A DNA stretch of 64,000 bases from Methyloversatilis discipulorum (GTDB taxonomy: Bacteria > Pseudomonadota > Gammaproteobacteria > Burkholderiales > Rhodocyclaceae). The notes beneath the pieces are model-generated. The model was given only the letters and a program-made list of their open reading frames with translations, was not told where the DNA came from and did not search any database. This document shows positions 6,524 to 7,881 of the stretch, one piece after another. The position numbers and the translations under genes were made by a program. Each line of letters begins with the position of its first letter. Position 1 is the first letter of the stretch. The stretch is from the NCBI RefSeq assembly GCF_000527135.1, contig NZ_AZUP01000001.1, forward strand, positions 3,100,001-3,164,000, given 5' to 3'.

Positions 6524-6772
6524 CTATTGATTCTTATAAGAATCTTCTTTACACAGCAAAAAGTGCGCAACCCGGCTTATCAGCGGACGGGCTGCTTCCT
6601 TTTCGACGAAGCTATTCAGGGCCGTTAGTCCAGCATCTGGATCCACAACGCCTGCATTGATGCGCCCAATGAAACGCGCTAAACCAATATCCTCGATAGT
6701 CTTGGTCAGAGAATCAATTTCATCCTTACTATCATCGGATCCGTGCTTTGCTACGTTGTTGAACTGACTCAT
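6524..6772 (-). CDS. hypothetical 82-residue protein, second gene of an accessory pair
   Basis: No family recognised. The protein is soluble in character and probably helical: an acidic N-terminal third (GSDDSKDEIDSLTKTIEDIG), then IGRINAGVVDPDAGLTALNS and a C-terminal segment RPLISRVAHFLL. Its ATG overlaps the stop of the upstream membrane gene by 4 nt (ATGA), and GGGGGT lies just before it, so the two are translationally coupled and probably act together. GC is about 52% in lines counted by hand, well below neighbours. It ends 6 bases from the mnmE stop, convergently. A perfect 16-bp palindrome, GATTCTTATAAGAATC (6529-6544), covers its last codons. Confidence 0.7.
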   Translation of the reverse strand: MSQFNNVAKHGSDDSKDEIDSLTKTIEDIGLARFIGRINAGVVDPDAGLTALNSFVEKEAARPLISRVAHFLLCKEDSYKNQ

Positions 6773-7881
6773 ATCACCCCCAGTTGTACTCGGGTAGCGT
6801 CATGTTCAATAAGACGCGTAATGAGCGAAATATAGGGTAGGGAACGCTTGTACGCAAAGTCTCCCATCCCCGTTTGAGATGAACTAGTCGCAACCTTCCT
6901 GTGGTCGCCCCATCGCCAAAACCTGTATGGCTTGGGGCTATGAACACAGATCACGCCGATGCAGTAGTCCACCACGAGTTTCGTAGCGCCATGCTGGCCT
7001 CCAGGGAGTCCAGGTCCAACTTCTTCCTTTGACGTGAAAATCGGTAGATAGAGCACACTGCGATAATTAACGGCTTCACTCCCAAGGACTGTAAGCCTTG
7101 TCTTCGGGCACGGGTTTTCTTTGTCTTGGAAGTCGTGCTCAGCGAACCAACGACCAGTCATCGCAGTGTGATAAGCGAAGAACTTTCGTGATTCACATGG
7201 TCGGTGTGTCGCTTCCGTGGTTGTCCTAGCAACGACTTGCATAGTCGATCCGTCAGGTGGGCAGAACTGAAGAAGCGTGACCTCTGTAACCGAATCGTGA
7301 GCGCGCTCTCCGATGAGATGGCTAATCTCAAGCTTGAGTGCCGTGAGACAGTGCCGTAGGGCTTCTGTTCGCCCGGTGCCGGAGTGCTCTGCAACTAGGC
7401 TGGGCATGAAGCGGATCGCTGCGTCCAGATCGGAGTGCGGTGTGCGATCGACTGACGTTTCCCGGGCTTTCGCCATTGCATCCATCAGCTTTGGCATACC
7501 GGTCAGAAACGCTATTAGGCCGATCAAGGTCAGATCAACAATGTCTAGGGATTCCAGCAGCTTGTAAGCGTGTTCGATATCGTTGCTGGCAACGGATGGC
7601 CCGAGGTTTGGGTGAGCGTTATCTGCGGCTTGTGCTTTGCTCGGTGCAATTAACTTCCTGACAAGCACAGGAAGACTTGCGGTTCCGAGGAACATGGACA
7701 GTCTTAGCAATAGTGCGCTTACACCGAGGAACGTTAGGCTTTGTGTGGATCCGATTATTCGGGGGAGTGTCTTGTGGCGAAGGCCGCATGCGGCCTCTGT
7801 CAGGCCGCCCTTGGTTCCCCGCTTTCGCTGCAGGTAATCGGTAATTTCTGACGACAGCTTATCGGTCTTTTGATCAACCAT
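6769..7881 (-). CDS. membrane protein with two TM segments and a GAF-like C-terminal region
   Basis: No family assigned with certainty. The 370 residues have a basic cytoplasmic N-terminus, a hydrophobic stretch at about 48-72 (LTFLGVSALLLRLSMFLGTA), a polar loop, and a second hydrophobic stretch at about 112-132 (IVDLTLIGLIAFLTGMPKLM). The remaining 230 residues alternate strands and helices in a GAF-like pattern (EVTLLQFCPPDGSTMQVVAR, YRSVLYLPIF, YCIGVICVHSPKPYRFW). That resemblance is by eye only. GC is about 52-55% against about 65% around it, indicating transfer. It is coupled to the 82-residue gene. A ligand-gated membrane sensor or effector is conceivable but unproven. Confidence 0.7.
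   Translation of the reverse strand: MVDQKTDKLSSEITDYLQRKRGTKGGLTEAACGLRHKTLPRIIGSTQSLTFLGVSALLLRLSMFLGTASLPVLVRKLIAPSKAQAADNAHPNLGPSVASNDIEHAYKLLESLDIVDLTLIGLIAFLTGMPKLMDAMAKARETSVDRTPHSDLDAAIRFMPSLVAEHSGTGRTEALRHCLTALKLEISHLIGERAHDSVTEVTLLQFCPPDGSTMQVVARTTTEATHRPCESRKFFAYHTAMTGRWFAEHDFQDKENPCPKTRLTVLGSEAVNYRSVLYLPIFTSKEEVGPGLPGGQHGATKLVVDYCIGVICVHSPKPYRFWRWGDHRKVATSSSQTGMGDFAYKRSLPYISLITRLIEHDATRVQLGVI

What the first reader, a model, noticed from the sequence alone, without database searches (positions are those of the whole stretch)
6769..7881. Unassigned two-gene membrane sensor-like module in transferred DNA
A 370-residue protein with two TM segments and a GAF-like C-terminal region is translationally coupled (ATGA) to an 82-residue helical protein. 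Both are about 10-13% lower in GC than the flanking genes and sit behind mnmE at a known integration hotspot. A membrane-anchored sensory or effector protein plus a small partner in accessory DNA is a layout often seen in defence, immunity or signalling cassettes. I recognise neither family, so any role is inference.
Basis: partly seen in the sequence, partly recalled or inferred. Interest (0 to 1): 0.8.

Follow-up and report, generated by a model that had tools for sequence, protein, structure and literature searches.

The report
Mobile two-gene membrane GAF sensor module
Two unstudied neighbouring genes, one for a membrane protein with a sensor-type (GAF) domain and one for a small helical protein, travel together as a small DNA insert and in one genome share the insert with a relative of a known anti-phage gene, so they may be a new defence or signalling cassette.

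Summary
Window 6769-7881 (minus) encodes a 370-aa protein with two membrane helices and a C-terminal GAF fold (pLDDT 84.7), overlapping by ATGA an 82-aa helical protein (6524-6772). Family libraries give no firm match. The pair is a 1.44-kb insert at the mnmE stop codon, absent from 12 of 12 congeners. The families number 63 and 33 proteins. In Comamonadaceae OS-1 it lies in an independent 3.2-kb islet at a tRNA-Arg 3' end with perfect 19-bp repeats; the only other gene I recognise there matches part of the anti-phage model bSEFIR. GAF is the last and most conserved domain; no enzyme follows. Best reading: a ligand- or redox-gated two-helix membrane effector with a small regulator, carried as defence-type cargo. 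Mobility, pairing and (predicted) fold are shown; ligand, membrane action and phage defence are inferred. It resembles 2TM-plus-sensor effectors (Panoptes 2TM-beta) in layout but passes no such family's membership tests.

The parts
6769..7881 (-). Large protein, 370 aa: N-terminal helical region (2-43), TM helix 1 (within 51-78), variable loop, TM helix 2 (within 114-141), linker helix (168-190), C-terminal GAF domain (about 196-362)
6524..6772 (-). Small partner, 82 aa, predicted helical; family core IG-ARF--RIN-G------G; overlaps the large gene by ATGA
6517..7954 (.). 1438-bp insert (GC 51.9%) absent from 12 of 12 congeners; ends set by alignment to the two closest congeners
6501..6518 (+). 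Last 18 bp of mnmE, the kind of site used by SGI1-type islands (last 18 bp of thdF/trmE); no second copy with up to 5 mismatches in the window
   Evidence: PMC3285670 passages
6796..6924 (-). Codes for residues 320-362, including the conserved RFWRWGDH loop (320-327) and the end of the GAF domain
5160..6518 (+). mnmE (trmE/thdF), host gene at the left end
   Evidence: name recalled from the sequence
7990..8754 (+). TauE/SafE-type exporter, host gene at the right end

Best explanation
A mobile two-gene module. The large protein is held in the inner membrane by two helices and carries a cytosolic GAF domain that reads a conserved small-molecule or redox/metal signal. Because GAF is the last domain and no enzyme follows it, the output must run through the membrane helices, the conserved N-terminal helices or the small partner. 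Most likely the small helical protein binds the large one and holds it off (or licenses it), and a signal change during infection or another stress lets the membrane part assemble and damage or depolarise the inner membrane. Shown: pairing, coupling, predicted fold, mobility, and one co-insertion with a bSEFIR-like gene. Inferred: cytosolic placement, ligand binding, partner binding, membrane action, defence role.
Against: No phage or toxicity data. Only 1 of 3 independent locations has a known-type defence gene. In the A7-Y/Caldimonas group the pair is at a shared chromosomal place with near-normal GC. No relative of the large protein in phages, plasmids or viral contigs at the sensitivity used. 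The membrane part is less conserved than the GAF part. The charge pattern is not clear-cut (loop net +1.1, N-terminus +2.5, after TM2 +1.4 over 48 rows), so topology is not secure. The RFWRWGDH loop lies in a block of lower confidence (pLDDT about 77). The small protein's model is moderate (pLDDT 72.5) with no fold match.
Confidence: 0.4

Rival explanations
1. A non-defence membrane sensor/regulator: GAF reads a metabolite, gas or redox state, and the small protein passes the signal on or tunes a host membrane process; it is mobile because it is a niche-adaptation gene.
For: GAF is the most conserved part. Conserved C207 (43 of 48 rows), C307 (45 of 48), C312 (48 of 48), D326 (47 of 47) and H327 (44 of 47) would suit a metal or redox site. 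Shared chromosomal position in one group, with a cation antiporter, PRC-barrel, M23 peptidase or GGDEF gene next to it.
Against: No one kinase, regulator or transporter is next to the pair at all three independent locations; one independent insertion shares its islet with a bSEFIR-like gene (62).
Confidence: 0.33
2. A toxin-antitoxin or holin-antiholin-like pair: the large protein is a membrane-disrupting protein and the small helical protein its dedicated inhibitor.
For: Coupled genes and conserved pairing. Among viral models the best four Foldseek matches (E 1.0e-3 to 7.1e-3) include two named holins; the other two have no useful name. Chains of the T4 holin T/antiholin RI complex appear among PDB matches (best E 1.0e-2).
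Against: The holin match is to the GAF-like soluble fold and ranks below GAF-fold proteins in PDB. T has one TM helix and a periplasmic domain (PMC11413866, abstract passage), this has two. A toxin-first gene order is less usual (recalled).
Confidence: 0.15
3. CBASS/Panoptes-type effector whose nucleotide signal is made by a synthase elsewhere in the genome.
For: Same layout as 2TM-beta (N-terminal TM helices, C-terminal ligand-binding domain; PMC12657230, passages). GAF domains are listed among nucleotide-binding domains of conflict systems (PMC7159879, passage).
Against: No CD-NTase or mCpol recognised as neighbour in the stretches read; the only cyclase seen next door is a GGDEF gene at one locus. 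Sensor fold differs (GAF, not beta-barrel). PADLOC: nothing but one of 48 rows at E 0.0096. No NKXnFX3DE cyclic-nucleotide motif (recalled) in 48 rows. The rest of the genome was not searched for a synthase.
Confidence: 0.07
4. A methionine-sulfoxide-reductase-like enzyme (fRMsr) tethered to the membrane.
Against: 11-12% identity. Many non-enzymatic GAF domains score alike by VIA-align. The cysteines lie on or at the ends of predicted strands 200-207 and 301-315 (40), not where I recall the fRMsr cysteines to be; this was not tested by a residue alignment.
Confidence: 0.03

Closest known systems
GAF domain proteins (structures 1ykd, 3ci6, 4mn7)
   Different: Sequence too far for Pfam GAF in the window protein (0 families; 6 of 48 rows weakly, best E 0.0078); own RFWRWGDH loop; no output enzyme
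Panoptes 2TM-beta (a Cap15 homologue)
   Same: N-terminal two-helix membrane part followed by a C-terminal ligand-binding domain (PMC12657230, passages)
   Different: GAF instead of beta-barrel; extra conserved N-terminal helices; partner is a small helical protein, not a nucleotide synthase
T4 holin T with antiholin RI
   Same: Membrane protein with a soluble domain that Foldseek matches to this one, plus a separate inhibitor; two named holins among the best four viral matches
   Different: One TM helix and periplasmic domain in T (PMC11413866); matches weak (E 1e-3 or worse); no sequence relation found
SLATT / DUF4231 2TM families
   Same: Two membrane helices proposed as pore-forming effectors (SLATT: PMC7159879, passages; DUF4231 kinship recalled)
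   Different: No SLATT model among the families matched by 48 rows at E <= 1; DUF4231 matched one row at 0.04
bSEFIR anti-phage protein
   Same: A partial match shares the 3.2-kb OS-1 islet with the pair
   Different: Separate gene on the other strand; not seen at the other loci read
SGI1-type islands at the trmE/mnmE 3' end
   Same: Same target gene end; the last 18 bp of the gene is the site (PMC3285670, passages)
   Different: Window insert is 1.44 kb, has no integrase gene and no second repeat copy

Membership tests
GAF domain | GAF fold | tested here: met
GAF domain | Pfam GAF gathering score | tested here: not met
   Window protein 0 families at E <= 10; 6 of 48 rows at E <= 1, best 0.0078
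Cyclic-nucleotide-binding GAF | NKXnFX3DE motif (recalled) | tested here: not met
   0 of 48 rows
CBASS / Panoptes | CD-NTase or mCpol gene next to the effector | tested here: not met
   ORF lists of window 1-20000, L006, L007 and parts of L025 and L026 read by eye; eight neighbours scanned with Pfam and six with PADLOC; a GGDEF gene at L025 is the only cyclase seen
CBASS / Panoptes | N-terminal TM helices plus C-terminal ligand-binding-type domain | tested here: met
   (layout only)
CBASS / Panoptes | Cap15-type beta-barrel sensor | tested here: not met
   The domain is modelled as GAF
SLATT 2TM effectors | Match to a SLATT-type model | tested here: inconclusive
   No SLATT model at E <= 1 in 48 rows; DUF4231 one row E 0.04
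T4 class III holin / antiholin | Single TM helix with periplasmic domain | tested here: not met
   Two hydrophobic helices; T topology from PMC11413866 abstract passage
Toxin-antitoxin | Toxicity of one gene relieved by the other | not testable with these tools
   Needs expression
Anti-phage defence system | Protection against phage | not testable with these tools
   Needs phage plating
Anti-phage defence system | Recurrent neighbourhood with defence genes | tested here: inconclusive
   1 of 3 independent locations (bSEFIR-like)
Site-specific genomic islet | Insertion with direct repeats at a tRNA or conserved gene end, empty in relatives | tested here: met
   OS-1: 19-bp perfect repeat at tRNA-Arg 3' end; site without the pair in 5 of 5 congeners that could be read across it, 2 more uninformative
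Site-specific genomic islet | Direct repeats at both ends of the window insert | tested here: not met
   Only one copy of the 18-bp site in the window with up to 5 mismatches
fRMsr | Catalytic cysteines at the enzyme's positions | not tested
   No residue-level structural alignment at hand; three conserved Cys counted

The most novel reading that the evidence does not exclude
A previously undescribed anti-phage system: a GAF-gated two-helix membrane effector controlled by a dedicated small helical partner, spread as minimal islets at mnmE and tRNA gene ends. It would be a bacterial 'holin/antiholin-like' or Panoptes-like membrane guard that uses a GAF domain to read an infection-related change in a host metabolite or redox state.
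Probability: 0.3. Interest if true: 0.8.

Novelty: new variant of a known kind. Interest (0 to 1): 0.57.

Why it matters
GAF is a very common sensor fold, yet my paper searches listed nothing that I could recognise as this combination of GAF, two membrane helices and a dedicated small partner in mobile cargo. The pair is small, self-contained and conserved, so its ligand, partner contact and phage effect can be tested directly in a laboratory strain. If it defends, it adds a sensor class to membrane-acting immunity; if not, it is a new mobile membrane sensor.

Tried and rejected

Literature searches; for most papers I saw only the listing and the start of abstracts. Passages seen: PMC11413866, PMC3285670, PMC7159879, PMC12657230, PMC7449626, PMC12322248, PMC11084316. 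No whole paper was read.

Limits of the counts: A1 holds the window protein and 47 of 63 hits; 16 hits were left out by hand to thin the set (P0001, 0004, 0011, 0016, 0021, 0024, 0028, 0035, 0036, 0039, 0041, 0042, 0044, 0045, 0047, 0054). A4 holds 31 of 33 small hits plus three proteins read from DNA; P0064 and P0068 (the window and A7-Y again) were left out, and P0065 equals the L005 row. The genome draws overlap, and only 5 or 6 candidates per genome were scored, so misses are possible. The matches include the centre genome itself. The contig-length test covers 5 of the 33 small and 63 large hits; the others are unplaced. The distance correlation shows joint inheritance, not contact; three of its ten pairs come from one genus.

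Full report
What is there. Two minus-strand genes lie between mnmE (5160-6518) and a TauE-type exporter gene (7990-8754): a 370-aa protein (6769-7881) and an 82-aa protein (6524-6772), overlapping by ATGA. GC is 53.5% and 46.2% against 64-68% for four neighbours, GC3 0.55 and 0.47 against 0.80-0.89. In the host genome each gives a single match.

The pair is an insertion. In 12 of 12 other genomes of the same genus mnmE runs into the tauE region without it. Against the two closest, the alignment stops at window 6516 and resumes at 7955, so the insert is about 6517-7954, 1438 bp, 51.9% GC. It starts at the mnmE stop codon. The last 18 bp of this gene is the attachment site of SGI1 (PMC3285670, passages), and islands at trmE, yicC and dusA are said to carry mainly modification, restriction and antiphage cargo (PMC7449626, passages). 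The window insert has no integrase gene and the window holds no second copy of the 18-bp site (up to 5 mismatches), so how it came in is not shown.

A second, independent insertion shows the mobility better. Of 7 other genomes of its genus, 5 with 79-96% identical neighbour protein could be read across the site and lack the pair (G837, G1109, G1041, G1491, G1201; G1491 and G1201 carry some other short DNA there); G960 and G1490 are uninformative. The islet is 3184 bp (L006 11874-15057, GC 50.5%), flanked by a perfect 19-bp direct repeat that is the 3' end of a tRNA-Arg(CCG) gene. Besides the pair I recognise one gene in it: a 252-aa TIR/SEFIR protein matching PADLOC bSEFIR at E 3.5e-76 over model positions 37-263 of 412, so a shorter relative. 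SEFIR systems are reported as anti-phage through NAD+ depletion (PMC12322248, passages; PMC11084316, passage). No integrase was recognised in the ORF list.

A third location is shared by three genomes that the search placed in one genus: Aquabacterium A7-Y (G798), G1197 (contig length equal to that of P0086, Caldimonas brevitalea) and G1200. The pair lies near a branched-chain amino-acid-type binding-protein gene (name recalled), with several kb of conserved flank on that side and differing genes directly on the other; in A7-Y and C. brevitalea conserved DNA returns about 5-7 kb further on. GC is near normal (63-67% against 67-70%). There it looks stably inherited. At C. brevitalea a GGDEF gene is next door.

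Pairing. The small protein alone finds only itself, but the partner seen in A7-Y is 42% identical over 53 residues. A profile of three finds 33 proteins. Both genes stand side by side at 5 of 5 loci read. In addition, 5 contig lengths (1690, 1914, 2337, 10376, 17283) occur in both hit lists (63 and 33 entries); with jittered lengths 0.21 are expected and 5 was never reached in 20,000 trials. Distances of ten pairs correlate with r 0.935 (0 of 5000 permutations); this shows joint inheritance only.

Distribution. Relatives are few in sequenced genomes: besides the own genome none in 60 relatives, 398 of the order, 368 of the class (16) or 328 of the phylum; 2 of 399 in the family of A7-Y, one of them A7-Y itself; only the centre in an overlapping draw of 379; 3 of 9 in the A7-Y genus, itself included. 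These draws overlap and score few candidates per genome. No relative of the large protein in plasmids, phages or viral contigs. 60 of the 63 proteins carry no NCBI source tag, so most are probably metagenomic (inference).

How it most likely works. With GAF as the last domain and no enzyme, the output must pass through the membrane helices, the N-terminal helices or the partner. The closest working analogue is the 2TM-plus-sensor effector of Panoptes, where loss of a nucleotide lets 2TM-beta assemble and collapse the inner membrane (PMC12657230, passages); more loosely, T4 holin T with antiholin RI, since two of the best four matches among viral models are named holins. I place the pair as a ligand- or redox-gated membrane effector with a dedicated regulator, carried as defence-type cargo, at 0.4. 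A mobile non-defence sensor is the main rival (0.33). By the tests made it is a member of none of these families; it does have the GAF fold.

Against my reading: one bSEFIR-like neighbour among three independent locations is thin support; the group with stable inheritance argues for a more general role; nothing shows toxicity, ligand or partner contact.

Noticed in passing
window 7959-7974 and 8764-8779: A perfect TGTTTCACGTGAAACA (parS consensus, recalled) lies 4 bases beyond the right end of the insert, and a second site with 2 mismatches lies after tauE; parA/parB-like genes follow at 11849-13505 (names recalled from the ORFs). The insert thus sits beside a likely centromere site.
   Followed up: partly
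window 6529-6544: A perfect 16-bp palindrome GATTCTTATAAGAATC within the 3' end of the small gene, 10 bp from the mnmE stop.
   Followed up: no
L006 15007-15046: Two tandem 20-bp near-repeats just inside the tRNA-side end of the OS-1 islet; possibly recombinase binding sites.
   Followed up: no
L006 13523-13705: Short open stretch in the OS-1 islet that reads like a recombinase tail by eye but matches no Pfam family.
   Followed up: partly
L032 1035-1280: In another congener of OS-1 two tRNA-Arg genes (CCG and ACG) stand side by side at the same site.
   Followed up: no
P0095 (protein list): One small-partner relative carries its own C-terminal membrane segment (19-residue hydropathy 2.58), hinting that the partner works at the membrane.
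   Followed up: no
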